Positions 28,989 through 42,642 of a stretch of 64,000 nt of DNA are shown here, piece by piece (position 1 is the stretch's first letter; each line of letters starts with the position of its first letter). The DNA is from Pelagicoccus sp. SDUM812003 (GTDB taxonomy: Bacteria; Verrucomicrobiota; Verrucomicrobiia; Opitutales; Opitutaceae). Made by a program: the position numbers and the translations under genes. A model generated the notes under the pieces. It made no database searches. It saw only the letters and a program-made list of their open reading frames with translations, and was not told the origin of the DNA. The DNA is taken from the NCBI RefSeq assembly GCF_031127815.1, contig NZ_JARXHY010000010.1, positions 62,001 through 126,000 of the forward strand, in the 5' to 3' direction.

Positions 28989-29663
28989 CTAGAAGCCGTA
29001 GCTCAAGGATACGCTTCCATAGAGATGCTCATCTGGAATTCCCAGACCGATGTCGTTGTCCGCGTAATGCACTCCGAGTTCAAGCCTCATCTGATCGCCC
29101 ACCTCGATCGGATAGATCAAGTCCACCCCGTAATAGGTGTAGTCGATCTGATCCCGAGTCTCGATGCGACCGAGATAGAGCTTCACCTCGCCCGGAAACC
29201 CATCCAGCGGCAAAGCCACCCCGCTAGAAAGCTCTAGCGTGAAGGCCTCCAGATCGAAATCGTAGTAGGCGTAGAGCGAAGGGGAAAAGGTGCCGAGCTC
29301 GGCGTTCACTCCCAGATAGGTCTCGAAACTGCTATCGCTGTCCTCGTAGGCGTAGAAGGTCGCGCCGGCATCCCAGAAGACCCGATCTCCTGCAGCCCAG
29401 CCCTTTCCCAGGTAAAAATCGTACTCGTTCTCGAAGCGGTCCGGAGCCGACCGGTTCTCCAGCGGCAAGGCCGCGAAAAAGCCCGCATACCAGTCCGAGG
29501 CAGCCCATTCGATGGAGGGATGAAGCGTGAAGTCGCCTAGCTGGAAACCGCGGTCCTGATAGAGACTGGTCACTTTCAGTTCGGAGAAAACACTGCTTTC
29601 CTGGGAAATCGCCCGCAGAGGCAAGGCAAGAAGCGCCATGAGGAGGGTTGCGCGTAGCATCAT
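28989..29663 (-). CDS. Putative outer-membrane beta-barrel protein (TorF/Gcw_chp-like)
   Basis: 224 aa with a signal peptide (about 1-19, ending RAISQ). The mature part alternates hydrophobic and polar residues in short strands rich in Tyr, Phe and Gly. It begins SELKVTSLYQDRGFQLGD and ends in a strand closing with aromatic Phe (YGSVSLSYGF), as outer-membrane barrels do. The opening motif resembles the TorF-like porin family. The role is unknown. It is divergent from the DUF423 gene. Confidence 0.65.
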   Translation of the reverse strand: MMLRATLLMALLALPLRAISQESSVFSELKVTSLYQDRGFQLGDFTLHPSIEWAASDWYAGFFAALPLENRSAPDRFENEYDFYLGKGWAAGDRVFWDAGATFYAYEDSDSSFETYLGVNAELGTFSPSLYAYYDFDLEAFTLELSSGVALPLDGFPGEVKLYLGRIETRDQIDYTYYGVDLIYPIEVGDQMRLELGVHYADNDIGLGIPDEHLYGSVSLSYGF

Positions 29664-29730
29664 CTGAGTCAGTCTTTCGTTCTATTAATAGCTCGCCCCA
29701 GAGGCGGAGCGAACCATTCCGTTTACGCAT

Positions 29731-29774
29731 TATAATTTTGGACGTTACAAGTTTTTATTTTGATTATTCAAAAT
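29731..29774. promoter_or_regulatory. AT-rich divergent promoter region with a dyad
   Basis: A perfect TATAAT at 29731-29736 and a dyad ATTTTGA-TTAT-TCAAAAT at 29757-29774 lie between two divergent genes. No good -35 is placed at the right distance, so the direction is open. Confidence 0.35.
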
Positions 29775-29809
29775 CATAGCCAATTCCAGTCGCAACCCCA
29801 TTCTGCCTG

Positions 29810-30184
29810 ATGAACCGTCTCACCCTCGTCTGTTTGATCGCCGCGCTTGGCATTGTCCTCGGGGCCTTCGGAGCCCACGCGCTGAAAGACCTCCTCGCGG
29901 AAAACGGGAGCGCCGAATCCTGGAGAACCGCGGTACTGTACCATCTTATTCATGCCGTCGCCTTGCTGGCGGTAGTTTCCCGAGGCAGCTCTCTCCGCGC
30001 CAAGTGGAGCGTGCCGCTGTGGGTTTTAGGCATTTTGCTTTTCTCCGGTTCCATCTACGGGCTTGCGCTCACCGGCTGGAAACTGCTGGGTCCGATCACG
30101 CCGCTCGGCGGTCTCGCCTTCATCGCGGGCTGGATCTTGCTGGCCATCGAGAACCGAGGCATTCAGGAATCGAAATCCGAGTAA
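29810..30184 (+). CDS. DUF423 family small membrane protein
   Basis: 124 aa with four predicted membrane segments and the family hallmark LGAFGAHALKD near residues 17-27, followed by the HAVALLAV helix. The family (E. coli YgdD) has no settled function. It is first in the plus-strand run leading to cca. Confidence 0.92.
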   Translation: MNRLTLVCLIAALGIVLGAFGAHALKDLLAENGSAESWRTAVLYHLIHAVALLAVVSRGSSLRAKWSVPLWVLGILLFSGSIYGLALTGWKLLGPITPLGGLAFIAGWILLAIENRGIQESKSE

Positions 30185-30237
30185 CCGTTTGCCCTCGCGG
30201 GGGTAAGGCTTCCGAGAAGCCGCCTCCTCTCTCTCCC

Positions 30238-31677
30238 ATGCCTGTCGAACCTAAACGCCAGCCCCTAGCTCTCGAGCTTCCGCGACCGCTGGAAAGCGCC
30301 ATCGAAACCCTGCGAAATGCGGGAGGACGCTGTCGCATCGTGGGCGGTTCCGTGCGGGACGCCTTGCTGGGCCTGATTCCCAAGGACTTCGACGTCGAGG
30401 TCTACGGCCTCGATCTAGACGCCATCTCGGAAAAGCTGTCCCAAATCGGGAAGACCGATCTGGTGGGCAAGTCCTTCGCGGTGGTGAAGCTGTGGACACG
30501 GGGCGAGGAGTACGATTTCGCCATACCGCGCCGCGAATCCAAAAGCGGGACGGGCCATCGAGGGTTCGCCATCGAAGCGGACGCCCGAATGAGCGAGTTC
30601 GACGCCCTGCAGCGACGCGATTTCACTATCAACGCCCTGCTCTACGATCCGGCCAGCAAGCAAGCGCTCGACTACTGCGGCGGTCTCGACGACCTGAAAA
30701 ACCGCATCCTTCGCCATGTCAGCCCCGCCTTCAGCGAAGACCCGCTTCGCGTGCTGCGCGGCATGCAGTTCGCAGGGCGTTTTCGCATGAGTCTCCATCC
30801 GGAAACCGCAGCCCTCTGCCGCGCCATCCGCAACGAGTTCCACAGTCTCTCCAAGGAGCGGGTCTGGGGCGAATGGGAAAAATGGGCCAGCCGCTCCACC
30901 TCCCTCTCCCACGGCCTGCGAGCTCTGCAGGACAGCGGCTGGCTGCCGCACTTCCCGGAGCTCAACGCGCTGGTCGGGCTGCCGCAGGACCCTGCATGGC
31001 ATCCTGAAGGCGACGTTTGGGCTCACACCTGCTGCTGCCTGGACGCTTTGATCCAGCACACCGATTGGGCTTCGCTTCCCCCCACCAAACGAGCCCTGCT
31101 GGCCTTCGGCACGCTTTGCCACGACCTCGGCAAGGCTCGCAGCACTCGGTGGGCCCTCAAGCGCGGCGCCAAGCATTGGATCAGCCCGGGCCACGACACG
31201 AACAGCGTCTGGCTTGCCCAGCAGTTCTTCGACCGCATGCGAGCCCCGCATCTGATCCGCGACAAGGTCATGCGACTGGTCGGCAATCACCACTTTCTCA
31301 ATACCGTACCGGAGGGCGGTCACAGCGACGCCAGTTTGCGTCGCCTTTCCAAGCGCCTCGCCCCCGCGACGAGCGAAGAGCTGCACTATGTGATGGTGTC
31401 GGATCATCGAGGACGCCCGCCTTTCGTTTCCAAAGCCCAAGACAAGCGTCTCGCCCAGTTCAAACAGCGTATCCAAGAACTGGATCTCAAGGAATCCGCC
31501 CCCAAGCCCCTCCTGCAAGGCCGCGACCTCATCGCCCGCGGATTCAAACCCAATCCGGATTTCAAATCGCTTCTCGAGTCGGCATACGAAGCCCAGCTCG
31601 ACGGCGCCTTCTCCTCACACGCCCAGGCTCAAGCCTGGTTTGACGACTTCCTGCAAAGCCGCGACCGCGCGAACTGA
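30238..31677 (+). CDS. cca: CCA tRNA nucleotidyltransferase with HD domain
   Basis: It adds or repairs the 3' CCA of tRNAs. The ATG at 30238 (MPVEPKRQPLALELPRP) gives 479 aa; the frame's upstream opening at 30004 overlaps the DUF423 gene. The nucleotidyltransferase core has GGSVRDALLG near 33-42 and the metal-binding DFDVEVYG near 47-54. The RNA-binding DFTINALLY and FSEDPLRVLRGMQFAGR motifs follow. The C-terminal part carries an HD phosphohydrolase motif (CHDLGKA) and GNHHFLN, as in E. coli-type enzymes with phosphatase activity. It ends 17 bp before the spermidine synthase-like gene, so the two may be co-transcribed. Confidence 0.94.
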   Translation: MPVEPKRQPLALELPRPLESAIETLRNAGGRCRIVGGSVRDALLGLIPKDFDVEVYGLDLDAISEKLSQIGKTDLVGKSFAVVKLWTRGEEYDFAIPRRESKSGTGHRGFAIEADARMSEFDALQRRDFTINALLYDPASKQALDYCGGLDDLKNRILRHVSPAFSEDPLRVLRGMQFAGRFRMSLHPETAALCRAIRNEFHSLSKERVWGEWEKWASRSTSLSHGLRALQDSGWLPHFPELNALVGLPQDPAWHPEGDVWAHTCCCLDALIQHTDWASLPPTKRALLAFGTLCHDLGKARSTRWALKRGAKHWISPGHDTNSVWLAQQFFDRMRAPHLIRDKVMRLVGNHHFLNTVPEGGHSDASLRRLSKRLAPATSEELHYVMVSDHRGRPPFVSKAQDKRLAQFKQRIQELDLKESAPKPLLQGRDLIARGFKPNPDFKSLLESAYEAQLDGAFSSHAQAQAWFDDFLQSRDRAN

Positions 31678-31694
31678 TCGCTCTCCCTTCCGAA

Positions 31695-33416
31695 ATGGAC
31701 TCCGTTTCCCATTCCTCGCTACCTATCGAATCGAAGCTCGGCTCCTCTTCTCGCAGCCTACAGACCTGGGCCATCGCCATCGTCATGTTCATCATGGGCG
31801 GCTGCGGCATGGCCTACGAATACACGCTGAGCAAGATCGCCTCCGACATATTGGGAAACTCCGTGCAGCAGTGGGCCATCGTCATCGCGGTGATGCTGTT
31901 TTGCATGGGCCTCGGAGCGGAGATCCAGAAACACATCCCAGATCGCAAGGTCGTGGATACGCTGGCCTATAGCCAGATCGCACTGGCCCTGCTGGGCGGC
32001 TTCAGCTCGCTGCTGATGCTGCACGTCTTCAGCGCCTTGCCGTCCCACTTCGTGCTCACGCAATACCTTCTGGTCAGCGCCATCGGCATCCTGATCGGCT
32101 TCGAGATCCCCTTGCTCACCCGAATCAACGAGCAGTTTTCCAGCGATGTTAAGAGCAACCTCGCCCGTATCCTGAAAATGGATTACATCGGAGCCCTCAT
32201 CGGAGCCCTCATCTGGGTCTTCTTCCTCTTCCGCACCTTCTCCATGGTGCAGACCGGACTCATCCTGTCGCTCACCACCTTGCTCGCCTGCCTGCTTTTC
32301 GTAGCGGCGTTTCGAGACCGGGTCCAAAAAGCCAGCAGACTGTACGTTTGCCTTTTGCTCGCAGCAGCAGCCATCGGCATCGGCTTCGCGTTCGAAAAGG
32401 ACTGGACCGCCACCGCGGAGCAACGCCTCTACCGCGACCGTATCATCTTTTCCACGACCACCAAGTACCAGCACATCGTGCTCACGGAAAATCGTGCCGG
32501 CGTCATGTCCTGCTTCATCAACGGCCACTTGCAGTTCAACGGCTACGACGAGCACATCTACCACGAGCACCTGGTCCACCCCGCCATGTCGATCGCCCCT
32601 CGGCGCGACAGGGTGTTGATTTTGGGCGGAGGCGATGGATTGGCTTTGCGCGAGGTCTTGAAATACGACGACGTGGGCCAGGTCACCTTGGTGGACTTGG
32701 ACCCAGTGATGACGGAACTGGCTCGCGACAATGAGCATTTTCTAAAACTCAACCACGGCAGCCTGCGCTCCTCCAAAGTATCCACCATCGCCAATACAGC
32801 CTTCCAAACCGACGCATCGCTGCAGATCCAACGCATCGCCCAATCCGGAGGCATCGACCAGAACCAGACCCTCAACCTGCCGCCAGTCCAAGTCATCAAC
32901 GTCGACGCAGCGGAGTTCGTGGCCCAAGCGCCCGGGCTCTACGATGTGATCATCATCGACTTCCCCGATCCCAATTCCGTGGAGCTGGCCAAGCTCTACA
33001 GCCAGCACTTCTACGGCTTCCTTCGACAAAAGCTTAGCGCCGACGGCATATTCGCCCAGCAGTCGACCAGCCCCTACCACGCGAAAGAAGCATTCCTGTG
33101 CATCGGTCGCACCATGCAGTCTGCGGGACTGGCTGTCGCGCCCTATCACGACAACGTTCCCTCCTTCGGCGAGTGGGGATGGTGGATCGGCGGACGAGAC
33201 AGCCACCAGAGCGCGGACGGCATACGCCAGCGCTTGCGATCAATCCCCTCCTTGACTGCCCCCACCCGCTACCTTACACCCGAAATCGTCGAGGCCTCCC
33301 TCGTCTTCGCGAAAAACCAACTCCATACCGACCGAACCGAGGTGAATACCATCACCAACCCCTGCATCTACACCTTCTATCTAGACGCCTGGAAGGAAAC
33401 GCGCGGCATCCTCTAA
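31695..33416 (+). CDS. Membrane-anchored polyamine aminopropyltransferase (spermidine synthase-like)
   Basis: 573 aa. The N-terminal ~235 residues form about seven membrane segments (from about residue 25). The C-terminal part is a spermidine synthase fold with YQHIVLTE (about 257-264), the decarboxylated-AdoMet site LGGGDGLALREVL (about 310-322), VDLDP, and the active-site DFPDP near 418-422. This membrane-fused form is known next to PspA/DUF350 genes. It should transfer the aminopropyl group made by the SpeD-like enzyme at 38442, but the acceptor and the purpose of the membrane part are unknown. It opens the nine-gene locus. Confidence 0.9.
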   Translation: MDSVSHSSLPIESKLGSSSRSLQTWAIAIVMFIMGGCGMAYEYTLSKIASDILGNSVQQWAIVIAVMLFCMGLGAEIQKHIPDRKVVDTLAYSQIALALLGGFSSLLMLHVFSALPSHFVLTQYLLVSAIGILIGFEIPLLTRINEQFSSDVKSNLARILKMDYIGALIGALIWVFFLFRTFSMVQTGLILSLTTLLACLLFVAAFRDRVQKASRLYVCLLLAAAAIGIGFAFEKDWTATAEQRLYRDRIIFSTTTKYQHIVLTENRAGVMSCFINGHLQFNGYDEHIYHEHLVHPAMSIAPRRDRVLILGGGDGLALREVLKYDDVGQVTLVDLDPVMTELARDNEHFLKLNHGSLRSSKVSTIANTAFQTDASLQIQRIAQSGGIDQNQTLNLPPVQVINVDAAEFVAQAPGLYDVIIIDFPDPNSVELAKLYSQHFYGFLRQKLSADGIFAQQSTSPYHAKEAFLCIGRTMQSAGLAVAPYHDNVPSFGEWGWWIGGRDSHQSADGIRQRLRSIPSLTAPTRYLTPEIVEASLVFAKNQLHTDRTEVNTITNPCIYTFYLDAWKETRGIL

Positions 33417-33463
33417 TGCCTAGTCGATATGAACCTTCGAAGCCTTAACCTCTCGCAGCGCCC

Positions 33464-34330
33464 ATGAGCTCTCTCCTCAAAATCGGACTCGGCATCTTCG
33501 CCTTCCTCTTCCTGCTCTCGTTCTATTCGAGCTGCTCGAATCGCATTCGCTACAACGACACCTACCAGGTCACCGTGCAGCAAACCAACATCCAAGACGC
33601 CGCGAGCGGGCTGGACCTGCAAGCGGTCGGAGAAATGGTCAAACGAGCCAGCACCGGAGCGGAATTCGAGCGGCTGCTCAACGACCCCGCAGTAGCTGTC
33701 AACAACCTCGACCTCGACGAGGACGGCCTGGTGGACTACATAAAGGTCACCGAATACGGCGAAGGCGACGTCAAAGGCTTCTCTCTCACCGTCGACCTTG
33801 GCGAAAACCAAACCCAGGAGGTCGCCACTATCGAGATCGAAAAGACCTCTGACGGACAGGCGAACATACAGACCCACGGAAACCCACACCTGTATGGCCA
33901 AAGCCACTACTACCACAGCCGCACCTCTCTCACCGATCTCCTTATCCTAGGGTGGCTCTTCAGCGGAAACCGTCCCTACTACAGCTCGCCTTGGGGCTAC
34001 AACAACTACCCGAACGACTATCGTCGCTGGACTCCAATGGGTGGATACAACTATCAGCGTCGAGCGGACAGCTATCGATCAGGCTCCAGCTGGTCGCAAG
34101 CGAACTCCTCCACGCTCAGCAAGACCCCCACCTCTCCCAACGCCACCAAGAACGCGACCAACATCAAAGCGCCGCTGAGAAACCCGACGGCCTCCCAAAA
34201 AAGCTTTCAAGCCCGCAATCCCTCCAAGCAGATCCGCAGCGGCGGCTTCGGCAAATCCAGCGCCACCCAATCCTCCTCGCCTAGCTTTCGCAGCAGCAGC
34301 TCCTCCAGCTTCCGCAGCGGCGGCAAATAA
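33464..34330 (+). CDS. Membrane- or lipid-anchored protein with an EF-hand-like loop and Ser/Gly-rich tail
   Basis: 288 aa. An N-terminal hydrophobic segment (about 5-22) ends in YSSCSN, which could be a lipoprotein site though the lipobox is poor. A calcium-loop-like DLDEDGLVD sits at 83-91. A second hydrophobic stretch (LTDLLILGWLFSG, near 155-167) is followed by Tyr/Asn-rich and then Ser/Gly/Arg-rich sequence. The tail contains GGFGKSSA, reminiscent of the GGFG tail of DUF1190 proteins such as E. coli YjfM, which accompany DUF350 and PspA. That link is suggestive only. Confidence 0.65.
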   Translation: MSSLLKIGLGIFAFLFLLSFYSSCSNRIRYNDTYQVTVQQTNIQDAASGLDLQAVGEMVKRASTGAEFERLLNDPAVAVNNLDLDEDGLVDYIKVTEYGEGDVKGFSLTVDLGENQTQEVATIEIEKTSDGQANIQTHGNPHLYGQSHYYHSRTSLTDLLILGWLFSGNRPYYSSPWGYNNYPNDYRRWTPMGGYNYQRRADSYRSGSSWSQANSSTLSKTPTSPNATKNATNIKAPLRNPTASQKSFQARNPSKQIRSGGFGKSSATQSSSPSFRSSSSSSFRSGGK

Positions 34331-34354
34331 CCCCTTTTCGGAAAGAGAAACAAG

Positions 34355-35254
34355 ATGGAATCACTCAACGAATTGTTCGGCACCGAAGAGGTTTTCTCCC
34401 TCATCGACCCCCTCGCCATCGTCTTCCTCGGCATCTCGATCGTCATCCTGTGGATCGGCAAGTGGGTCAACGACCTCTGCACCCCCTACCAGCTCTCCCA
34501 AGAACTGACGCAAAAGGACAACAAAGCGATCGCCGTATCCTTTTCTGGATACATCCTTGGCATCGGCATCATTCTTTGGGGCGTGCTTCGCCAAGACGTT
34601 TCCGCTCAGGCGGTCAATCCAAATACCAACATCCTGCTACGCGACCTCGGCGGCACCGTCCTTTGGTCGCTCTTCGGCATCGCCCTGCTGCAAGTGGCCC
34701 GCGTGGCGAACGACAAGCTGCTGCTGCGTCGCTTCAGCAACACCAAGGAGCTCGTGGAAGACCAGAACATCGGCACCGGCGCCGTGCAGGCCGGCTCCTA
34801 CATCGGATCGGCCTTCATGATCAAAGCCGCCACCTACGGCGAATCCTCCGGCAGCCTGCTTGCGGACATCCTCCTCACCCTGATCTATTTCGTGGTGGCT
34901 CAAGCGGCCTTCATCCTCTTCGCGATGGTCTACCAAAAGATCAGCGCCTACGATCTGCACGACGAAATCGAGCGCGACAACGCCGCGGCGGGCGTCGGCT
35001 TCGGAATCACCCTCGCCGCGATCGGCATGCTGCTCTCCAGCTATATCGTATCCAGCGATTCCCTACTGGGTCTCGCGGTCTGGTTCGTGATCTGCGTTTT
35101 TCTCCTCTCCGTCTGCCGTTTCGCCATCGATCGCTTCATCCTTCCGGGATCCTTGCTGGATGACGAAATCTCAAAGGACCGCAATTGGGGAGCCGCCTTG
35201 ATCGAGGGCGCTTCCGCCATCGGCCTGGCCTTGATTCTCGGCGCCTTGTTCTAG
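34355..35254 (+). CDS. Duplicated DUF350 (YjfL-like) membrane protein
   Basis: 299 aa with about eight membrane segments. The DUF350 pattern, a charged KDN/RDN-type turn followed by Ala/Gly-rich helix, occurs in two tandem units. Unit one has TQKDNKAIAVSFSGYILG and EDQNIGTGAVQAGSYIG; unit two has IERDNAAAGVGFGITLA and SKDRNWGAALIEGASAIG. E. coli YjfL has one unit. The family is linked by gene neighbourhood to PspA and polyamine genes but lacks a biochemical function. It overlaps nothing and is spaced 24 bp from the previous gene and 6 bp from the next. Confidence 0.9.
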   Translation: MESLNELFGTEEVFSLIDPLAIVFLGISIVILWIGKWVNDLCTPYQLSQELTQKDNKAIAVSFSGYILGIGIILWGVLRQDVSAQAVNPNTNILLRDLGGTVLWSLFGIALLQVARVANDKLLLRRFSNTKELVEDQNIGTGAVQAGSYIGSAFMIKAATYGESSGSLLADILLTLIYFVVAQAAFILFAMVYQKISAYDLHDEIERDNAAAGVGFGITLAAIGMLLSSYIVSSDSLLGLAVWFVICVFLLSVCRFAIDRFILPGSLLDDEISKDRNWGAALIEGASAIGLALILGALF

Positions 35255-35260
35255 TTTCCC

Positions 35261-36070
35261 ATGTCGGAAAAAACCAACTACACCGTTAGCGAGACCCAGA
35301 AGCAGCAGTTCGCTGCCATCTATCTACTGGAGTACATGATCAACGCTCCCAAGGTTTTCCAGCTCATGCTGGAGCGGGAGGAGGAAGATCTGGAGCCCAT
35401 CCTGGAATGGCTGCTGACGCGGGACTTCATTCAAATCAAGGATCAGGAAAAGTACGCGCCGACGGAGAAAGGACGCGACGCTCTGCAGCGTTTCATGCGC
35501 CGCTACACCGATTTCCTGACCTTCTTCGACGTCTTCTGCGCCGTCGATCTTCAGGAAGGGACCTTCGCTTTCGCCAGCTACTTCGACTTCGACAACAAGC
35601 TGGAATGGCAACGTTTTCTCAATGACGAGCGCTGGGAAGATTTGCGAGTGGCCGTGGCCGCCTACAAAGGCATCGATCCGGTGGAGATCGTTTTCATGAG
35701 CTTCCTCAGCGAAAACCGGTTCGGCCGCAACGAGACGGGATGGCAGTTCGACCTGCTGCTGGGCAGCGTCTGGGACGAGATCCTGGAAATCTGCAAAACC
35801 GCCGTATCCGCCGAGCAGCTTGGATGGGAGGACGATGATGGTTTCGTCCCGGGCGAGTCCGTAATCAAAGATGTCATCGAGCAAGGTCTCGCTCTGATTG
35901 AGCAACTCCACATTCACGAGACCGCGCCCCACCGGAACATCGAACACCAAAGCCAAGATTCGCCAAGCGAAGCCACGGTCCAGAAAGTTGACTTGCTGGC
36001 CCAGCGATCCAACCGCTTCGACGCCACGCCAGAACCACCCGACGAATGGCAGGAACCTTGGTCCCTGTAG
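35261..36070 (+). CDS. Conserved-looking hypothetical protein of the PspA locus
   Basis: 269 aa, soluble and acidic. The first ~85 residues look like a winged-helix fold (IYLLEYMINAPKVFQLML ... DFIQIKDQEKYAPTEKGRDAL). The central part is helical with FLTFFDVFCAVDLQEGTFAF. The last 60 residues are polar and probably disordered. I cannot assign a family; in position it matches the YjfK/DUF2491 or DUF4178 slot of related loci, but I see no clear similarity to either. Tight spacing (6 bp upstream, 31 bp downstream) places it in the operon. Confidence 0.7.
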   Translation: MSEKTNYTVSETQKQQFAAIYLLEYMINAPKVFQLMLEREEEDLEPILEWLLTRDFIQIKDQEKYAPTEKGRDALQRFMRRYTDFLTFFDVFCAVDLQEGTFAFASYFDFDNKLEWQRFLNDERWEDLRVAVAAYKGIDPVEIVFMSFLSENRFGRNETGWQFDLLLGSVWDEILEICKTAVSAEQLGWEDDDGFVPGESVIKDVIEQGLALIEQLHIHETAPHRNIEHQSQDSPSEATVQKVDLLAQRSNRFDATPEPPDEWQEPWSL

Positions 36071-36101
36071 GCGGTTATTCGATACATTTCAACGAATCAG
36101 G

Positions 36102-37199
36102 ATGCTCTTTCAGATAATCAGACGAATCATCAACAGGGGGGACGAAACCACAATCCGTCTCACTAAGGTTCTTTTGGTGGCGTTGGGGCTAAACCTGTTT
36201 TTCGGAACTGGATACTATCTCGCCGAGCGCAGCTATCAGGAGGGACTCGGCTACCTCGACTCTCTCTGGTGGGCCATGGTCACCATGACCACCGTCGGCT
36301 ACGGCGACTATTTTCCTCAAAGCTTCGTCGGTCGTTTCGTCATCGCCTACCCGTGTTTTCTGGTAGGAATCGGACTGCTTGGCTACCTGCTTGCCACCAT
36401 CACCGAAGCAGTGCTCGAACGCGTATCCAAAAAACGGAAAGGCGCCATGAAAATCAAAGACTCCAATCACATCATCATCTGCAATTTTCCGAGTCTGGAC
36501 AAAGTCCTGCAAATCCTCGACGAACTGCAGGGAAATCCAAGCTACGCCAATAAAAAGGTCGTCATCGTCACCGAATCCATCGACGAGCTCCCGGCGGCTT
36601 TGCTCAAACGAGGCGTCCTCTTCGTGAAAGGCCTACCGACTTCCGAAGAAGTCCTCTACCAAGCGAACGTCACGGAATCCGACGGCGTATTCATTCTTCC
36701 AGCACACCCAGGCGACGCCTCGTCAGATGCGTTGACTTACGCTATCGGCTCCATCGTGGAGATGATCGAGACAGAGACCGGCAAACCCATCAAAACCGTG
36801 GTGGAGCTAGTCAGCTCGCGCAACCTGAAGATGATGCAGCGCGCCCAGACCGATGGCATCATCCTATCCGATGGGATCAACGAGCGCATGATCGTGCAGG
36901 AGTTCTTCTATCCGGGCATTCGCAAGACCTTCGAGCAGCTCATCACCTGCCGCGAAGGCAGCCAATTCTACACCCACGCCACTCGCTTCGTGGGAAAGCG
37001 TTTTATGGACCTGCAGATGGCGTTTATCCAGCATCCGGTCAACCTGCAGCTCATTGGACTCATCAAGGGCGACCAGCATGTGCTCAATCCGAACAAGCGA
37101 ACCATCGTGGAAAAGGGGGATCGGCTGATCATCCTTGCTGACAAACCCGAAGACTTTCTTTCAATCGAAAACGACATCGAGCCCCAGCTGTCAGCCTGA
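36102..37199 (+). CDS. Potassium channel with cytoplasmic RCK (TrkA-N/TrkA-C) domains
   Basis: The ATG at 36102 (MLFQIIRRIINRGDE) gives 365 aa; a frame opening at 35898 overlaps the previous gene and is rejected. Two membrane segments (about 20-40 and 80-105) flank a pore loop with a perfect selectivity filter TVGYGDYF near 65-72. A TrkA-N domain (about 115-240, HIIICNFPSLDKVLQIL) and a TrkA-C domain (about 270-360) follow, as in MthK-type channels. The dinucleotide-binding Gly motif of TrkA-N is altered (CNFPSLDKVL instead of GxGxxG), so ligand control may differ. VIC-type channels recur beside PspA and DUF2170 genes. Confidence 0.92.
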   Translation: MLFQIIRRIINRGDETTIRLTKVLLVALGLNLFFGTGYYLAERSYQEGLGYLDSLWWAMVTMTTVGYGDYFPQSFVGRFVIAYPCFLVGIGLLGYLLATITEAVLERVSKKRKGAMKIKDSNHIIICNFPSLDKVLQILDELQGNPSYANKKVVIVTESIDELPAALLKRGVLFVKGLPTSEEVLYQANVTESDGVFILPAHPGDASSDALTYAIGSIVEMIETETGKPIKTVVELVSSRNLKMMQRAQTDGIILSDGINERMIVQEFFYPGIRKTFEQLITCREGSQFYTHATRFVGKRFMDLQMAFIQHPVNLQLIGLIKGDQHVLNPNKRTIVEKGDRLIILADKPEDFLSIENDIEPQLSA

Positions 37200-37223
37200 G
37201 GCGTCCAACCTAACCCATCCCAG

Positions 37224-37634
37224 ATGAACGAAGTGATAGTAAAAATAGAAAAACAAGAGGAGTTCTCCCGCTTCCTCACCCTCCACGGATTCCAGGTCGA
37301 GGAACTGGACAACCAAGTGTATCAAGTAACCCGTGACGGGGAGCTTCCGGTCTTCGTTAAGATCTCCGAAACCAGCATCTACTTCGAGGTGGACCTTGGC
37401 AACCTGAACGCCTTCGGCTCCTCCGATCTTCACTTCAAACTGCTCGATCTGAACACGGAAATCCTTCCCGTCAGCTTCGGCATCAACAACACCAACCCCG
37501 AGGACCCGCGCCTGGTACTGGTGGAAAGCCGAGAAACCGGCAGCCTCAACGACCACGAGATACTGAGCGTGTTCGACGCTCTGGAACTCGCCACCGACCG
37601 GGCCGAAGTCCTGCTCACACAACACATCGCCTAA
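37224..37634 (+). CDS. DUF2170 family protein (YjfI-like)
   Basis: 136 aa. The conserved core runs GELPVFVKISETSIYFEV, a short linker, HFKLLDLNTEILPVSFGI, and a C-terminal helix SVFDALELATDRAEVLL. This matches the DUF2170 family. In E. coli yjfI lies directly before the PspA paralogue yjfJ, and the same order is seen here with a 24-bp gap. The biochemical function is unknown. Confidence 0.82.
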   Translation: MNEVIVKIEKQEEFSRFLTLHGFQVEELDNQVYQVTRDGELPVFVKISETSIYFEVDLGNLNAFGSSDLHFKLLDLNTEILPVSFGINNTNPEDPRLVLVESRETGSLNDHEILSVFDALELATDRAEVLLTQHIA

Positions 37635-37658
37635 GCCCCCTCAACCGAAGGATATCAA

Positions 37659-38354
37659 ATGAGCATTTTCTCACGCATTTTCAAGGTAGGCGAAGCCGCC
37701 GCAAACAAGGTTGTCGACAAGATGGAGAAGCCCGAGCTCATGCTCGAGCAGGCCATCCGCGACAAGGAGAAGCAGATCATGGAAGCCAAGAAGTCCGTGC
37801 AGGGCTGCATCGCGACCGAACGCCAGACCAAGGCCCTGCTGGAAAAGGAAAAGGCCGACAAGTTCACCTGGGAGCAGAAGGCGGAAATGGCCCTCAAGGC
37901 CGGCAAGGAAGACCTCGCCGTGCGGGCCCTGCAGCGAGCCACCGAGCACGAGCAGAAAATGACCAGCTTGGAAACGCAGTGGCAGAGCCAACGCGCCTCG
38001 GTCGACGAGCTTAAGAAGGAAATCATCAAGATGGGCGACGAGCTGGCCGAGTTCAAACGAAACAAGGACTTCATCATCGCCCAAAGCAAAGCGGCTCAAG
38101 TCAAGAAGGACATCTACGAAGCCAAGGCCCGCATCTCCAAGAACAACAAGGCCGACGACCTCATGGCTCGCATGAAAGCCAAGGCGGAACGCCAGTCCTA
38201 CGAAGCGGACGCGGCCAAGGAACTCTCCGAAGTTTCCGGCGGATCAGGCGACACTCTGGACAGGGAGTTCGAAGAGCTGGGTAGCGGCGGCGCCTCCTCG
38301 CCCGCAGTCAACGACAAGCTGGCCGCCTTGAAAGCGAAATTAGGCAACGCCTAG
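37659..38354 (+). CDS. pspA: PspA/IM30 family envelope-stress protein
   Basis: 231 aa, almost wholly helical and coiled-coil. It begins MSIFSRIFKVGEAAANKVVDKMEKPELMLEQAIRDKE in outline, the PspA/IM30 hallmark with an amphipathic first helix and the P-E-x-M-L-x-Q turn. Long heptad-patterned helices run to about residue 190, then a Gly/Ser-rich tail. PspA proteins bind stressed inner membrane and form rods or rings related to ESCRT-III. It is the YjfJ-type paralogue by context rather than the pspABC operon form. GAAGG 8 nt before the ATG is a fair ribosome site. Confidence 0.92.
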   Translation: MSIFSRIFKVGEAAANKVVDKMEKPELMLEQAIRDKEKQIMEAKKSVQGCIATERQTKALLEKEKADKFTWEQKAEMALKAGKEDLAVRALQRATEHEQKMTSLETQWQSQRASVDELKKEIIKMGDELAEFKRNKDFIIAQSKAAQVKKDIYEAKARISKNNKADDLMARMKAKAERQSYEADAAKELSEVSGGSGDTLDREFEELGSGGASSPAVNDKLAALKAKLGNA

Positions 38355-38368
38355 CAGAATCCTGAGTC

Positions 38369-38432
38369 TGTAGGTCGCCGCGCCGAGGCGACAAAACATT
38401 GCAAGTCAGGCGGGTCACCGCCCCGCCCTACA
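38369..38432. repeat. REP-like twin-hairpin element between pspA and the AdoMet decarboxylase gene
   Basis: A 64-bp element bounded by inverted TGTAGG (38369-38374) and CCTACA (38427-38432). Inside are two 6-bp hairpins with 7-nt loops: GTCGCC/GGCGAC (38374-38392) and GGCGGG/CCCGCC (38409-38427). This looks like an inverted pair of REP units. It ends 9 bp before the GTG start of the next gene. Confidence 0.55.
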
Positions 38433-38441
38433 ACCAAACTG

Positions 38442-38852
38442 GTGAAGCTTACCAATACAGCCGAAAATCAAACGAGTCTTTCGAATGCCGAGGGCCGTTC
38501 TACCGCCCTCGGCACTCACATCTTGCTAGAGCTCGAGAACTGCCCGGACGAGCTCTTGCTTGATGCCGAGAAGCTGGAGGAAACGCTCGTCGCCGCCGCG
38601 ACCGATGCGGGCGCTCACGTGGTTAAGAGCGTCTTTCACCAATTCAATCCCCATGGGCTTTCCGGAGTCGTGGTCATCGCGGAAAGCCACATAGCCGTCC
38701 ATACCTGGCCCGAATACGCGTACGCGGCCATCGACATATTCACCTGTGGCGATGCCGTCATTGCTCAGCGGATACAAAACCAAATCGCCTCGTCCTTCGC
38801 TCCCGCGAGCGTATCGTCTCAGCTCGTCGAACGCGGTCCCCATAGCGGCTGA
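38442..38852 (+). CDS. speD: S-adenosylmethionine decarboxylase proenzyme (SpeD-like)
   Basis: It makes decarboxylated AdoMet, the aminopropyl donor. 136 aa from a GTG start at 38442, the only start codon before the conserved region [13 protein letters not shown]. The self-processing site is intact: Glu81-Ser82, where Ser82 would become the pyruvoyl group, followed by His87 in HTWPEY and Cys102 in IDIFTCGDA. These match the prokaryotic class 1B enzymes. It carries about 22 extra N-terminal residues. The nearest aminopropyltransferase is the membrane enzyme at 31695, nine genes apart in the same locus. Confidence 0.93.
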
Positions 38853-38888
38853 CCTGAGCAGCAGCGCGCCAAGCCTTCCTCCAAACCG

Positions 38889-40235
38889 ATGGACACCATT
38901 CGAGCAGCAGCGCGAAGCTGCCTCAAGGACTTCTCTGCCACCAAGCGGGAGCTCATGTCGAAGCATTCCTGCTCCGATTTCGAAATCGATTTCGAGCTGC
39001 GCTTCGCCCTCTTTCTCGCCAGCCTCATCGATGGGGAAAGGAACGCCTCCGAACGCATCTTCCTGCAAACGGCAAGCGCCACCCTCGGTTGGTCGGAAAT
39101 GTACGACTCGCTGCTGACGTCCCGTATCGAAAGCTTGCCGACCTACGAGCTCGATCAGCTGCGCATCGCCCGCGAGCGCCCCTCGCTCGCCAAAGAGGTC
39201 TTTCGCGCCGCCTTCGCCCTTTGCTTGTGCGACAGCGACCTCACCGCCGACGAGCGCATTTTTCTCTCCAACCTCTCCCAAGCGCTTTTTCCAAAAAACA
39301 ACGCCCTCGCTGCTCAGCTGGAAGCGCAAGCTCGCGAATTGCTGTCCAGAAAGGGTCCGCCTCTGATCGAATCTCCCGTCGAACAAGCCCAAGTCGCTCC
39401 TCAGGAGGACGTCGACGATTCGGCGACGCTCGAAGATGAGCTGCAAACGCTCGACGAGCTGATCGGTCTGGCTCAGGTGAAACAAGAAATCCAAGGGCTC
39501 GCCCGCTTCCTGGAAATCCAAAAACAGCGACTGGAACACAACCTGAAAGCCACCCCGCTTTCGCTCCATTTGGTTTTCTCAGGCAACCCAGGCACGGGCA
39601 AAACCACCGTGGCCCGCATCCTGGCTCGCATCTTCAAGAAACTGGGAGTCCTGCAGAAAGGCCATCTCATCGAAACCGATCGCATGGGTCTGGTGGGCCA
39701 GTACGTCGGCCACACCGCCAAGAAAACCTCTGAGGTCGTGGAGAGCGCCCTCGATGGCGTGCTCTTCATCGACGAAGCCTACAGCCTTTTAAGCGGTGGC
39801 GAAGGCGACTTCGGTAGTGAAGCGATCGATACGCTGGTCAAACGCATGGAGGACTATCGCGACCGCCTGATCGTCATCGTGGCGGGCTATCCCGCCAACA
39901 TGGAGGAATTCATTCAGACCAATCCCGGACTGCGATCACGCTTCAGCAAAACCATCCTCTTCGAAGACTACCAAAGCGAGGAGCTCCTGAAAATCTTCCA
40001 AATCTTCTGCGCCAAGAATCAGTACGAGCTCTCCGAAAAGGCCAAGGAAAAGCTGACTCAACTTTTTGAATACATCCTCGCCCAACCCCGCAACGACTTC
40101 GGGAACGGCCGCTACGCGCGAAACTTGTTCGAACAAGTCATCCGCAACCAAGCCTTGCGCCTGAGCCAAATCGAAGGCGACCTCGATAAATCCGCCCTAA
40201 TCACCATCGAAGCCGACGACATCGTATTCCCGTAA
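38889..40235 (+). CDS. TerB-like/CbbX-type AAA+ ATPase
   Basis: 448 aa. The N-terminal half has two TerB-like helical repeats, each with an acidic motif before E-R-I-F-L ([17 protein letters not shown] near 40-56; [19 protein letters not shown] near 112-130). The C-terminal half is a CbbX/SpoVK-type AAA+ domain: Walker [10 protein letters not shown] starting at about 231, pore-loop region GQYVGHTA, Walker [12 protein letters not shown], sensor IVAGYP, and arginine finger NPGLRSRF. Such ATPases remodel protein complexes. At the end of the PspA locus it may remodel PspA or its partners, an inference from position. A stem-loop follows at 40261. Confidence 0.88.
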
Positions 40236-40553
40236 AGTAGGGAATACGTTTATGCTATCAGCTGGTTTTTGCGAAACCGGCAGGCAGTTAACAAGTCGAT
40301 CTCCACAAGAAGGCGCGAAGAATAAGCATTTCCTAAACCAGGCTTCTATAGCTGGTCACAGCGCATTGGTTTTCGTGCCTCTTCGTGGCGAGAACCAATC
40401 ATCGATTCAGATCGAACGAGGCTGATTCCAAACAACAGCGACTCTGCCTTGCGCTTCCACGTCCTCGCCAGCCGCATGCAAAAGGGGTTAACCACTTTTC
40501 TTCTGGCAAGGATACGGATAGATCCCTAGTAGTTCCTGCGATTCCTCCTCTCC
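40236..40553. other. 318-bp non-coding gap with two inverted repeats
   Basis: No gene is seen. GCTGGTTT/AAACCGGC (40261-40281, 5-nt loop, one G-T pair) could end the preceding operon but has no T run. ATTGGTTTTCG (40365-40375) pairs with CGAGAACCAAT (40389-40399) with one mismatch and encloses TTCGTG-type words like those in the arginine cluster. The gap looks like degraded intergenic repeat sequence. Confidence 0.45.
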
Positions 40554-40850
40554 ATGCCCACCCGATTCCTGCAACAGCTGGTCGACAACCCCGACCGCGG
40601 CCCCGGACGCGTCTTCGCTTGGTTCATCCAGATCGTTATCATAGTTTCGATACTCGATTTCACCATCGAAACCATGCCCAGCATCTCGCCCACGCTTCGC
40701 TCTAGCCTGTGGCTGGTCGAAGTCGTCTCCATCGCCATCTTCACCGTAGAGTTTCTGCTGCGAGTCTGCTTTTCGAAAAAAGGCATACGCTACGCATCAA
40801 TTTCGTTTCCAAACAAGTTCTCCTACGAAACATCGATAAGTCTTGCATAA
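40554..40850 (+). pseudogene. Truncated voltage-gated ion-channel gene (N-terminal fragment)
   Basis: 98 codons. The first ~80 residues match the start of bacterial Kv-type ion transport proteins: a short cytoplasmic start, S1 (WFIQIVIIVSILDFTIE, about 23-39) and S2 (LWLVEVVSIAIFTVEFLLRV, about 52-71), then KKGIRYA. Homology stops near residue 79 and about 19 unrelated residues lead to a stop. S3-S6 and the pore are absent here and after the next two genes. The break lies next to the XRE-ImmA/PIN pair, which suggests that its arrival removed the rest. Confidence 0.75.
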
Positions 40851-40869
40851 TTGACTTTTGCAAGATTTA
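40837..40869 (+). promoter_or_regulatory. Dyad operator candidate before the XRE-ImmA gene
   Basis: TAAGTCTTGCA (40837-40847) and TGCAAGATTTA (40859-40869) are inverse copies with one mismatch and an 11-nt spacer. TTGACT (40851-40856) inside the spacer could be a -35 box. The site lies 31 bp before the ATG of a gene with its own HTH domain, so autorepression is plausible. Confidence 0.5.
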
Positions 40870-40899
40870 GGCAGATGTTTCCTCAACCCGGAGCTAGCT

Positions 40900-42012
40900 A
40901 TGGACTCACTCTCTCGACTCATCGGCGAACGCGTAAAACTCGCTCGGCAGGAGGCGAAACTCTCGCAAGAAAAGCTTTCGCACACCCTCGATTTCAAGGA
41001 CCGGCAAACCTTGTCCACCATCGAAAATGGCCAACGCCGCGTCAGCGCGGAGGAACTCGTTCAATTCTCCGAAGCTCTTCGCAAACCTTTGGACTATTTC
41101 ACAGATCCCTACCTGGTCGCGGGCGAGAAAGCCTTCTCCTATAGGTCGCTAAATGCGTCCGAAACGGAGATCGCAGACTTCGAGTATCTGGCCGGCTCTT
41201 ACATCGCCACCCACCGTCGTTTCCAGGAACTGCTCGAACAAACGGCAAGCCCCGCACAAGCGAAGATTTCTTCGATCGGAGAGAAGACCCCTCTCGATTT
41301 CGCGACATACCAAGGCGAACGCTGTGCCGCTGCATGGGATCTAGGAGACGTACCCACAAAAAGACTACGCGAGGCGGTCACACAAGAACTTGGAATTCAA
41401 GTTTTATACGTCGACGCGCCTGCCTCAATATCTGGAGCTGCCTGTCGTTTAGACGATGGAGCTTATATTCTGATTAATCGAAACGAGCCCAATACTCGAC
41501 AGAACTTTGATATTGGACACGAACTGTTTCACTTGCTCACTTGGGACAAGCTCCCCCCGGCGCGTCTCGATCTCGTTATCGATGAATCAGAGATCAAGAA
41601 AAAGCGCCCCGCTGCTGAGAAGCTCGCTGACGCATTCACAGCTGGACTACTTATGCCCTCCGAAACAATGAGACAGATTTGGGCAAGACGTGGCGACCAA
41701 GACCATGAAGAGTGGATCACCCAAACAGCAGACCAGCTTGGTGTTTCGCCCATGGCTGTCTATTGGAGAATGGTCAATCTTCGCGTCTTCAAGAAAACCC
41801 GCGAAGCACAGCAGGCCGCTGCAGCCCTTCGCGGAAAAAGTGTGGAAGCCCGTCCACAACTTTTCAGTCCAGAGTTCGTAGGAGATCTGTACAAAGTGTT
41901 GGAGCGTGGGGCCATCACAGTGCGAAAGGCGCTCAAGCTTCTCGACATTGATCAGGAGGAACTCGAAGATCTTTTCGCTTCCTACAAACTAAAGCCACCA
42001 TTCGAGCTGTAG
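40900..42012 (+). CDS. XRE-family regulator fused to ImmA/IrrE metallopeptidase
   Basis: The ATG at 40900, with CGGAG six bases upstream, gives 370 aa; a TTG at 40858 is in the dyad and is rejected. The N-terminal XRE helix-turn-helix (about 5-65) reads RLIGERVKLARQEAKLSQEKLS. The C-terminal half is an ImmA/IrrE-type zinc peptidase with HELFH at 207-211, and the DAFTAGLLMPSE segment that follows is typical. This is the COG2856 layout, which acts as the sensor/antidote in toxin-antitoxin or phage-response pairs. The PIN-like gene starts 8 bp after its stop. Base use is more AT-rich than in flanking genes. Confidence 0.92.
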   Translation: MDSLSRLIGERVKLARQEAKLSQEKLSHTLDFKDRQTLSTIENGQRRVSAEELVQFSEALRKPLDYFTDPYLVAGEKAFSYRSLNASETEIADFEYLAGSYIATHRRFQELLEQTASPAQAKISSIGEKTPLDFATYQGERCAAAWDLGDVPTKRLREAVTQELGIQVLYVDAPASISGAACRLDDGAYILINRNEPNTRQNFDIGHELFHLLTWDKLPPARLDLVIDESEIKKKRPAAEKLADAFTAGLLMPSETMRQIWARRGDQDHEEWITQTADQLGVSPMAVYWRMVNLRVFKKTREAQQAAAALRGKSVEARPQLFSPEFVGDLYKVLERGAITVRKALKLLDIDQEELEDLFASYKLKPPFEL

Positions 42013-42019
42013 TTACCTA

Positions 42020-42532
42020 GTGAATCCTCCGACTCGAAACAGTATCATACTTGTTGATACAAATGCTATCGCCGCTGCTCACAAACTCAACTGCTGGAAT
42101 GCCCTCAAGCGAAGCTACAAACTACATACAGTAGAGCTCTGCATAGAAGAGGCCACACGACCAAACAGACAAGGACGCCGTCTTGTCGATCGAGATCCCG
42201 ATCAGCTAAAAAGTGACTTTGCGAAAGTCGTCATGGTGGATAAGAAATCCCAAGCTGAACTGATGCTTGCAGTGGGAAACCGCAACGATGTCGATGAGGG
42301 AGAACGCGATCTTCTGGCCTACGCCAAATCTCTTTCAGGAAATGTCTGGTGGCTCTGCGGGCCCGACAATGGCACGGTTCATGCCATGAGGATCTTAAGA
42401 CTTTTCGAACGGATGGTTTCTCTCGAGGCCATTGCCCAAGGTTGCGGACATCGCTTCAAATCCCTGCCACAAAACTATTCCGAAGAATGGCTAGCGAACC
42501 ACCGACGAGCATTCCTCTTCGATGACCTGTGA
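42020..42532 (+). CDS. PIN-like domain protein, candidate RNase toxin
   Basis: 170 aa from a GTG start. It has the spaced acidic residues of PIN nucleases: Asp13 in ILVDTNAI, Glu43/44 in ELCIEEA, Asp97 within DVDEGERDLLAYA, and Asp116 in LCGPDNG. PIN proteins cleave RNA and often form toxins. Its partner is the XRE-ImmA gene just upstream. This pairing is known for PIN-like families such as DUF4411, but I cannot place the exact subfamily. The toxin role is inferred. Confidence 0.75.
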   Translation: MNPPTRNSIILVDTNAIAAAHKLNCWNALKRSYKLHTVELCIEEATRPNRQGRRLVDRDPDQLKSDFAKVVMVDKKSQAELMLAVGNRNDVDEGERDLLAYAKSLSGNVWWLCGPDNGTVHAMRILRLFERMVSLEAIAQGCGHRFKSLPQNYSEEWLANHRRAFLFDDL

Positions 42533-42588
42533 CCAGCTTCTGAATTGAGTTAGCTGTTCTCAAAGAAGAGTCATTTCCGAAAAGCCGC

Positions 42589-42619: not shown

Positions 42620-42642
42620 TTCGAAAAAAAGTATCGAAAAAC

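What the first reader, a model, noticed from the sequence alone, without database searches (positions are those of the whole stretch)
31695..40235. Nine-gene PspA-polyamine-ion channel-AAA+ locus
Genes with 6-88 bp spacing join a membrane spermidine synthase, an EF-hand-like/Ser-rich protein, duplicated DUF350, an unknown protein, a K+ channel with RCK domains, DUF2170, PspA, SpeD and a TerB-like AAA+ ATPase. Parts match E. coli yjfI-yjfJ-yjfL and known PspA neighbourhoods (established). Having both enzymes of aminopropyl transfer inside one PspA locus suggests that a polyamine, or a polyamine-modified molecule, acts in membrane-stress repair (inference).
Basis: partly seen in the sequence, partly recalled or inferred. 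Interest (0 to 1): 0.85.

Follow-up and report, generated by a model that had tools for sequence, protein, structure and literature searches.

The report
PspA–aminopropyltransferase–AAA+ membrane gene cluster
Nine adjacent genes, probably from a Verrucomicrobiota bacterium, form a cluster conserved in other bacterial phyla that joins a membrane-repair protein (PspA) to its own ATPase motor and to an enzyme pair that transfers aminopropyl groups; it is a richer variant of an operon type already described from genome comparisons, and its function is still inferred.

Summary
The nine genes exist at the given coordinates, on one strand, 6–87 bp apart. Two labels change: the 'DUF2170' protein matches CesT/Tir chaperones instead, and the AAA+ protein is CbbX/EccA-class with an N-terminal domain that is TerB-like in about half its homologues.

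The cluster is no accident. Five of 28 named loci carry all nine families in the same order; g1–g7 recur in a Calditrichales genome and in Thermodesulfobacteriota-type genomes. Of 132 sampled genomes of the host's order, seven have the full-length ATPase, all with the aminopropyltransferase; all six strong SpeD hits lie inside the cluster.

The host also encodes SpeA, an agmatinase and a carboxyspermidine synthase-like/decarboxylase pair, plus a canonical pspF–pspA. So here SpeD and the membrane aminopropyltransferase are probably not for bulk spermidine. Several other cluster-bearing genomes show no such second route.

The core idea (polyamine or aminopropyl chemistry linked to CesT–PspA, DUF350 and a K+ channel) is published (Ravi 2024; Li 2019 by recall), as are other AAA+ links to CesT–PspA. 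I did not find in print the TerB–CbbX-type ATPase, its MoxR counterpart in one lineage, or family g4. New variant of a known kind; mechanism inferred.

The parts
31695..33416 (+). g1: hydrophobic membrane domain fused to a spermidine-synthase-type aminopropyltransferase domain (NCBIfam NF002956/PRK03612)
   Evidence: Pfam PF01564 1.3e-33; NF002956 592.7 bits, cut-off 472; D285, Y289, D314, D336, D404, D422, D425, Q456 the same in 15 of 15 aligned sequences. Number of TM helices not computed
33464..34330 (+). g2: one N-terminal hydrophobic segment, conserved acidic Ca-binding-like loop (LDLDEDGLVDYIKV), Ser-rich tail; probably membrane-anchored
   Evidence: no Pfam match; conserved in 3-row alignment A4; homologues in other phyla
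34355..35254 (+). g3: two DUF350 (YjfL-type) membrane domains in one protein
   Evidence: PF03994 4.8e-60, two stretches
35261..36070 (+). g4: no Pfam or NCBIfam family; predicted winged-helix-like N-terminal part plus a mostly helical C-terminal part
   Evidence: 17-row alignment; AlphaFold pLDDT 81.4; MarR/PadR-type rows at Z 5-5.9, weak and tied
36102..37199 (+). g5: K+ channel with TVGYGD filter and RCK-type cytoplasmic region
   Evidence: PF07885 4.8e-15, PF22614 4.8e-08, Castor_Poll_mid 3.1e-06; filter
37224..37634 (+). g6: CesT/Tir-type chaperone-like protein next to PspA
   Evidence: CesT_Tir_1 in 6 of 6 members, best 2e-07; no DUF2170 match
37659..38354 (+). g7: PspA/IM30-family protein, distinct from the host's canonical PspA
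   Evidence: PF04012 2.2e-42; 84.8 bits against cut-off 242.95 of canonical PspA TIGR02977
38442..38852 (+). g8: S-adenosylmethionine decarboxylase SpeD, the only hit in the host genome
   Evidence: TIGR03330 132.6 bits, cut-off 75.65; S82, H83, H87, C102 invariant in 18 of 18 rows; one genomic hit
38889..40235 (+). g9: helical TerB-like N-terminal domain plus CbbX/EccA-class AAA+ ATPase domain
   Evidence: CbbX 3zuh E 6.5e-58; TerB PF05099 in 7 of 13 homologues; model against CbbX 3syl: Z 25.8, rmsd 3.8, 262 aligned
40223..40248 (+). terminator-like hairpin (9 pairs, then TTTATGCTAT) at the end of g9
   Evidence: 20 terminator-like sites in 29500-41000 on both strands, 12.8 expected from shuffles

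Best explanation
The locus is one co-inherited module for remodelling or repairing the inner membrane. SHOWN by sequence: SpeD (g8) keeps its processing and catalytic residues; g1 is a membrane-fused aminopropyltransferase with its conserved acidic residues; the host encodes a separate spermidine route and a canonical pspF-pspA. INFERRED, in order of confidence: (1) g8 makes decarboxylated AdoMet for g1, which in this host transfers aminopropyl groups at the membrane to an acceptor other than the cell's bulk putrescine (a lipid head group, a membrane protein, or a local polyamine pool). (2) PspA (g7), held by the CesT-like protein (g6), polymerises on damaged or altered membrane, and the TerB-CbbX-type ATPase (g9) takes the polymer apart or reshapes it, doing for PspA what Vps4 does for ESCRT-III. 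In one Thermodesulfobacteriota-type lineage a MoxR ATPase takes that place. (3) The RCK-type K+ channel (g5), DUF350 protein (g3) and loop-bearing anchored protein (g2) sense or set the membrane state; g4 is a winged-helix-like scaffold that does not bind DNA.
For: Conserved order across phyla. In the order: full-length g9 in 7 of 132 genomes, all 7 with g1; SpeD at E<1e-30 in 6 of 132, all six inside the cluster. In G011, g1, g2-g3-g4 and g9 lie on three contigs and are all kept. Host spermidine route: SpeA; carboxyspermidine synthase-like, NspC and agmatinase adjacent. NspC in 7 of 8 g1-bearing genomes of the order, over its cut-off in 6. Of 19 named loci with PspA and at least 1.3 kb after it, 16 have an AAA+ gene just downstream: 9 CbbX-type, 7 MoxR. 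Pairwise distances of the nine families correlate at r 0.62-0.96. SpeD as AdoMetDC rather than arginine/ornithine decarboxylase: PMC10407285 says its anomalous SpeD genomes lacked canonical SpeA/SpeC (passage), whereas this host has SpeA.
Against: No aminopropyl acceptor is identified; no expression or phenotype data. g1 without SpeD: G011 and G144, the genome of L081, have g1 but no SpeD hit. SpeD without g1: L067 keeps g4 and g6-g9 but no g1, g2, g3 or g5 within 10 kb. No NspC was found in cluster-bearing G004 or in G132, G136, G137, G139 and G140 (completeness not told), where the pair could make ordinary spermidine. The g1-NspC association is not significant (p 0.06), and co-occurrence tests are not corrected for phylogeny. 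L073, L085 and L087 show no such ATPase in 1.6-8.5 kb after PspA. The seven MoxR genes are 83-100% identical to that of L081, so they count as one lineage. CbbX and EccA, the nearest relatives of g9, have no ESCRT-like role that I know of.
Confidence: 0.48

Rival explanations
1. The SpeD-g1 pair is an ordinary or second spermidine (or aminopropylagmatine) supply; the cluster raises free polyamine near the membrane, which stabilises it and blocks or gates the K+ channel.
For: g1 scores over the cut-off of a polyamine aminopropyltransferase model. The host has SpeA and an agmatinase, so agmatine and putrescine should be available. No NspC was found in G004 or in G132, G136, G137, G139 and G140.
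Against: The host and 6 of 7 other g1-bearing genomes of its order carry NspC, as do the Pelagicoccus, Puniceicoccaceae K14 and Opitutaceae genomes G133-G135. By recall (paper not held), Li et al. 2019 found that such membrane fusions did not complement a spermidine synthase mutant. Neutral: the nine other sampled genomes of the host's family had no hit to g1, SpeD or NspC.
Confidence: 0.27
2. g9 is a CbbX/EccA-like chaperone for another client (for example the g1/DUF350/channel membrane proteins), and PspA is only a neighbour.
For: The best-matching solved relatives are CbbX and EccA1. The locus has several membrane proteins that could be clients.
Against: In Lentisphaeria L067, g9 stays next to CesT-PspA-SpeD although g1, g3 and g5 are absent within 10 kb. 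A different AAA+ class, MoxR, sits in the same place after PspA in another lineage.
Confidence: 0.2
3. The cluster is only a loose neighbourhood of envelope genes without a joint mechanism.
For: G011 keeps several of the genes on separate contigs; gene content varies.
Against: Same order in other phyla at 42-64% protein identity (L070, L071, L081) while the window's adjacent genes are not shared; co-occurrence in the order.
Confidence: 0.05

Closest known systems
Second group of CesT/Tir-PspA operons in Ravi et al. 2024 (PMC11237479, passages read; example AAN56744.1/AAN56746.1)
   Same: CesT-PspA dyad, membrane-fused spermidine synthase-like protein, long YjfL/DUF350 protein; that operon also has a lipoprotein that g2 may correspond to (not tested)
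   Different: The passage names no SpeD, K+ channel or AAA+ gene in that operon. DUF4178 is named there; no window protein of the cluster matches it, but it lies beside the cluster in L029 and L030
Third group of the same paper (PspA dyad with glutathionylspermidine-synthetase-like ATP-grasp, K+ channel, DUF350, DUF1190, DUF2491)
   Same: K+ channel, DUF350 and polyamine enzymes with PspA; AdoMetDC in related variants
   Different: None of the nine proteins matches ATP-grasp, DUF1190 or DUF2491; a membrane aminopropyltransferase instead
[quoted passage not shown]
   Same: An AAA+ gene linked to a CesT-PspA dyad
   Different: Different ATPase architecture; none of the nine proteins here matches flotillin or band-7. 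So the AAA+ link as such is prior art; the TerB-CbbX class is what differs
AdoMetDC + membrane-spermidine-synthase fusion + DUF350 clusters, Li et al. 2019 Biochem J 476:2579 (recalled; not held; reference seen)
   Same: Recalled: functional AdoMetDC beside a membrane-SpdSyn fusion that does not make spermidine, with DUF350
   Different: I do not recall PspA, CesT, K+ channel or AAA+ partners from it; could not be checked
ESCRT-III/Vps4 systems (survey PMC10936438, passages read)
   Same: PspA belongs to the ESCRT-III superfamily; an AAA+ gene and a possible winged-helix protein are encoded with it
   Different: The ATPase is CbbX/EccA- or MoxR-class, with a TerB-like instead of an MIT domain; [quoted passage not shown]
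P. aeruginosa bac cluster (PMC10948618, passages read)
   Same: CesT-fold protein (BacA) beside a PspA (BacB); biofilm phenotypes
   Different: BacA is DUF2170; the paper finds no spermidine synthase homologue in or around that operon

Membership tests
Canonical PspA (TIGR02977) | score over the curated cut-off 242.95 bits | tested here: not met
   g7 84.8 bits; the host's PspA on contig C4 scores 261.9, beside a PspF at 458.9 (cut-off 443.55)
PspA/IM30 superfamily (PF04012) | Pfam domain over cut-off | tested here: met
   145.6 bits, cut-off 33.9
DUF2170 / YjfI (PF09938) | Pfam match | tested here: not met
   no match at E<=1 in 6 of 6 members
CesT/Tir superfamily | Pfam match over cut-off | tested here: inconclusive
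   window protein 22.4 bits (cut-off 27) and 21.3 (cut-off 22); 6 of 6 members match CesT_Tir_1, best 2e-07
Membrane-fused polyamine aminopropyltransferase (NF002956/PRK03612) | score over cut-off 472 | tested here: met
   592.7 bits
Spermidine synthase by function | putrescine to spermidine activity | not testable with these tools
   needs an assay; TIGR00417 speE 129.9 bits, cut-off 249.55
AdoMet decarboxylase, B. subtilis type (TIGR03330) | score over cut-off; processing Ser, His, Cys | tested here: met
   132.6 bits, cut-off 75.65; residues invariant in 18 of 18. These residues are shared with SpeD-derived Arg/Orn decarboxylases (PMC10407285), so activity is not proved
CbbX (TIGR02880), SpoVK (TIGR02881), EccA (TIGR03922) equivalogs | score over cut-off | tested here: not met
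   245 of 459.25; 318.3 of 422.95; 249.3 of 466.65 bits: same class, none of these proteins
TerB (PF05099), N-terminal part of g9 | Pfam match | tested here: inconclusive
   7 of 13 homologues, best 2.5e-05; window protein none at E<=0.05
Winged-helix protein (g4) | fold match well above background | tested here: inconclusive
   best Z 5.9 (rmsd 8.2, 106 aligned), many tied rows; Foldseek none at E<=0.001
Ravi group-2 PspA operon | CesT-PspA dyad + membrane-fused spermidine synthase + double-length DUF350 | tested here: met
   against the passage; the 7TM and 8TM counts of the paper were not computed here
Ravi group-3 PspA operon | glutathionylspermidine-synthetase-like ATP-grasp gene | tested here: not met
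   none of the nine proteins matches such a family
ESCRT-III/Vps4 system | AAA+ partner binds and disassembles the ESCRT-III polymer | not testable with these tools
   only gene linkage shown

The most novel reading that the evidence does not exclude
A bacterial ESCRT-like machine: PspA with a dedicated, exchangeable AAA+ motor (TerB-CbbX type in Verrucomicrobiota and Lentisphaeria, MoxR in a Thermodesulfobacteriota-type lineage) and a winged-helix scaffold, coupled to a membrane enzyme that marks lipids or proteins with aminopropyl groups. It would be both an unassigned membrane modification and the energy source for PspA remodelling.
Probability: 0.25. Interest if true: 0.88.

Novelty: new variant of a known kind. 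Interest (0 to 1): 0.57.

Why it matters
Ravi et al. 2024 state that it is unknown how PspA homologues without an associated AAA ATPase regulate their assembly (passage). This cluster offers a specific ATPase to test, with a different ATPase class in the same place in another lineage as a comparison. It also offers hosts in which aminopropyl transfer can be separated genetically from a second spermidine route, which makes the question of another acceptor testable.

Tried and rejected
DUF2170 for g6: rejected. An EF-hand family for g2: no Pfam match. A sigma-54 promoter: 22 pattern matches in the window against 26.5 expected by chance. Sigma-70-type promoters at 29500-41000: 1 found, 2.8 expected. 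Rfam at 29000-43000: no match. An anti-phage role: I scanned 5 of the 9 proteins (g1, g2, g4, g6, g9) against PADLOC; g1 hit mad2 (4.7e-15) and g9 hit IetA, DolB and TRIP13 models (best 2.4e-10), which I read as shared methyltransferase-like and AAA+ domains; g2, g4 and g6 had none. A first host search with PF02784 showed only SpeA and LysA and made me think a carboxyspermidine route was absent; the NspC model overturned that. Agmatine deiminase: PF04371 hits in the host, but the best is below the AguA cut-off, so I rely on the agmatinase. Fold search with the g9 model listed no TerB structure, the AAA+ domain filling the list. The PspA C-terminal tail (NDKLAALKAKLG-type) is conserved in 28 rows and recalls a Vps4-binding motif from memory, but it is equally present where the ATPase is MoxR, so I draw nothing from it.

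Print searches behind 'not found in print': and term searches in the main text of PMC11237479 (CbxX, TerB, Verrucomicrobi, MoxR, CbbX and EccA each 0). Its supplementary tables were not read, and the library lacks most subscription papers, so the linkage may be recorded elsewhere.

Because of the last two I lowered the best explanation from 0.50 to 0.48 and raised the first rival from 0.25 to 0.27.
Full report
WHAT IS THERE. The window holds nine same-strand ORFs at 31695-40235, with gaps of 47, 24, 6, 31, 24, 24, 87 and 36 bp. In order: g1 membrane-fused aminopropyltransferase, g2 anchored protein with a conserved acidic loop, g3 double DUF350, g4 a family without a model, g5 RCK-type K+ channel, g6 CesT-like protein, g7 PspA, g8 SpeD, g9 AAA+ ATPase. 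A terminator-like hairpin overlaps the end of g9 (such matches are common in the region). g6 is not DUF2170. The TerB-like label for g9 is borne out in 7 of 13 homologues, and its ATPase domain is closest to CbbX and EccA. That the host is a Verrucomicrobiota near Pelagicoccus is my inference from the nearest named loci.

HOW WIDESPREAD. I searched 132 sampled genomes of the host's order with three cluster proteins. g9 at E<=1e-20 hits 17 of 132; 7 are full-length hits including the N-terminal domain, and the other 10 match the ATPase part only. g1 hits 8 of 132, one of them (G111, 75% complete) a fragment. g4 hits 4 of 132. The 7 genomes with full-length g9 are all among the 8 with g1 (Fisher p 6.8e-11, not corrected for phylogeny). 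None of the nine other sampled genomes of the host's family had a hit to g1, g4, g9, SpeD or NspC at the thresholds used, so the cluster is patchy. In five of the six other genomes with full-length g9 the genes found lie within about 20 kb (L026-L030), with differences: L027 shows no g2, g4 or g5; L029 and L030 no g2 or g4; in L028 the DUF350 gene is inverted and g1 lies several kilobases away. In G011, g9, g2-g3-g4 and g1 lie on three contigs, and no SpeD was found; g5-g7 were not looked for beyond those stretches.

A search with the g6 alignment in named genomes matched 46 stretches and gave 28 loci. 25 of 28 have PspA near g6; the three Delongbacteria loci do not. Five of 28 (L063, L064, L065, L066, L068) have all nine families in the same order; L068 has 3.3 kb between g1 and g2 and appears to be the same contig as G008:C47 (same length). 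L070, L074 and L081 (Deltaproteobacteria, 'Proteobacteria' and Thermodesulfobacteriota by record title) have g1-g7 in order, and L071 (Calditrichales) has g1-g8 with one extra ORF before pspA. Many loci are cut by contig ends. The window's genes directly before g1 and after g9 had no hit in the 28 loci. In Pelagicoccus (L066) the cluster lies near the same transaldolase gene as in the window (85% identity), so the two share a chromosomal site.

THE AMINOPROPYL ARM IS PROBABLY DEDICATED IN THIS HOST. The host has one SpeD and one spermidine-synthase homologue, both in this locus. It also has SpeA (730.5 bits, cut-off 624.1), and on contig C2 three adjacent genes: a carboxynorspermidine synthase-like protein (4.6e-127; 424.6 bits, below that model's cut-off of 800), NspC (507.8 bits, cut-off 409.05) and an agmatinase (186 bits, cut-off 174.3). 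By established pathway knowledge this is a separate route to spermidine. NspC at E<=1e-40 is in 67 of 132 genomes of the order (60 over the cut-off) and in 7 of the 8 with g1 (6 over it; G111 has fragments); the association is not significant, p 0.06. All six SpeD hits below 1e-30 in the order lie inside this cluster; G111 and G127 have only weak hits.

Results outside that sample are mixed. I looked at the genomes behind 16 of the 28 named loci: SpeD in 13, NspC in 4 (completeness not told). G133, G134 and G135 (Opitutaceae, Puniceicoccaceae K14, Pelagicoccus) have one SpeD each, in the cluster, plus NspC. G132, G136, G137, G139 and G140 have the cluster SpeD but no NspC, so ordinary spermidine synthesis is possible there. 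G138, G141, G142 and G145 have a strong SpeD on a contig other than that of the CesT-PspA locus, or outside the stretch held for it. G144 (L081) has g1 but no SpeD hit, as in G011.

Both enzymes look active. g1 residues D285, Y289, D314, D336, D404, D422, D425 and Q456 are the same in 15 of 15 sequences; that these include the canonical donor-binding and catalytic positions is recalled, in line with the alignments to solved enzymes. In SpeD the processing serine, two histidines and cysteine are invariant in 18 of 18 rows, three of them very divergent (L085-L087). These residues do not separate AdoMet decarboxylase from SpeD-derived arginine or ornithine decarboxylases (PMC10407285, passages). 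That paper reports that genomes with such anomalous SpeD lacked canonical SpeA or SpeC, while this host has SpeA, so I keep AdoMet decarboxylase.

PSPA AND ITS ATPASE. The locus PspA is not the host's canonical PspA: it scores 84.8 bits on TIGR02977 (cut-off 242.95), while contig C4 carries a canonical PspA (261.9) beside a PspF (458.9, cut-off 443.55). A third PspA_IM30 hit is on C8. Of the 19 named loci with PspA and at least 1.3 kb after it, 9 have the TerB-CbbX-type ATPase (in L072 cut by the contig end) and 7 have a MoxR gene downstream (L077, L078, L079, L081, L082, L083, L084); L073, L085 and L087 have neither. The MoxR genes are 83-100% identical to that of L081, so they are one lineage. 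Pfam was run on, and confirms, MoxR in L081 and L078; in L081 it is followed by DUF58, DUF4381, two vWA proteins and BatD. No SpeD lies in the sequence held around the seven MoxR loci. Of the seven, only L081 shows g1-g5; L078 has 6 kb and L082 3.6 kb upstream without them, and L083 shows the end of g5. I read this as exchange of the AAA+ partner of the same CesT-PspA pair; it is gene linkage, not binding. Ravi et al. 2024 already describe other AAA+ links to PspA, including a CesT-PspA operon with a beta-propeller-fused AAA+ protein, and propose ATP-dependent remodelling (passages). PMC10936438 says PspA genes are often next to winged-helix proteins (passage).

g4. No family model matches above cut-off. 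The model (pLDDT 81.4) has a winged-helix-like N-terminal part: best VIA-align Z 5.9 at rmsd 8.2 over 106 residues, many tied rows, so weak. Foldseek has no match at E<=0.001. The helix in the recognition position carries conserved acidic residues (E45 invariant, D43 nearly so), which argues, by inference, for protein contacts rather than DNA binding.

MECHANISM AND CONFIDENCE. I give 0.48 to the combined model. The unit itself I regard as near certain; a dedicated aminopropyl arm in this host about 0.65; the ATPase acting on PspA about 0.5; the roles of channel, DUF350, g2 and g4 are guesses.

RELATION TO WHAT IS KNOWN. The main concept is published: CesT/Tir-PspA operons with a membrane-fused spermidine-synthase-like protein and DUF350, others with a K+ channel and polyamine enzymes, and the suggestion that PspA systems respond to polyamine level or aminopropylation (PMC11237479, passages). 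Li et al. 2019 (recalled) proposed a polyamine-independent role for AdoMetDC with such fusions. The locus here merges features of both published operon groups and adds the TerB-CbbX ATPase and g4. I did not find these additions in the main text of that paper by term search or in six library searches; its supplements were not read.

Noticed in passing
window 38370-38432: GC-rich stretch between pspA and speD that folds into paired hairpins (fold z -1.86); one copy in the window at up to 3 mismatches. May be a REP-like element or a processing site.
   Followed up: partly
window 40858-42532: HTH + COG2856-like gene (PADLOC RmrA models, best 3.2e-26) followed by an ORF that looks PIN-like by eye: possible toxin-antitoxin-like or stress-regulator pair just after the cluster.
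   Followed up: partly
L040 9844-11721 (host contig C4): Canonical divergent pspF-pspA pair in the same genome, so the host has at least two PspA systems.
   Followed up: yes
L081 11314-18645; also L077, L078, L079, L082, L083, L084: MoxR gene after CesT-PspA in seven related loci; in L081 followed by DUF58, DUF4381, vWA and BatD genes.
   Followed up: partly
L073 2112-4840: Calditrichia: an extra ORF (RluA-like by eye) between the CesT-like gene and pspA, and a patatin-like phospholipase gene after speD.
   Followed up: partly
L029 7848-8594 and L030 2716-3336: DUF4178 gene beside the cluster in one Opitutia family, as in the published group-2 operons.
   Followed up: partly
L085, L086, L087: Short, very divergent SpeD-like proteins after pspA that keep the processing serine, histidines and cysteine.
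   Followed up: partly
L088, L089, L090: Delongbacteria: a g6-like gene without PspA nearby; in L088 and L090 followed by small ORFs of unknown kind.
   Followed up: no
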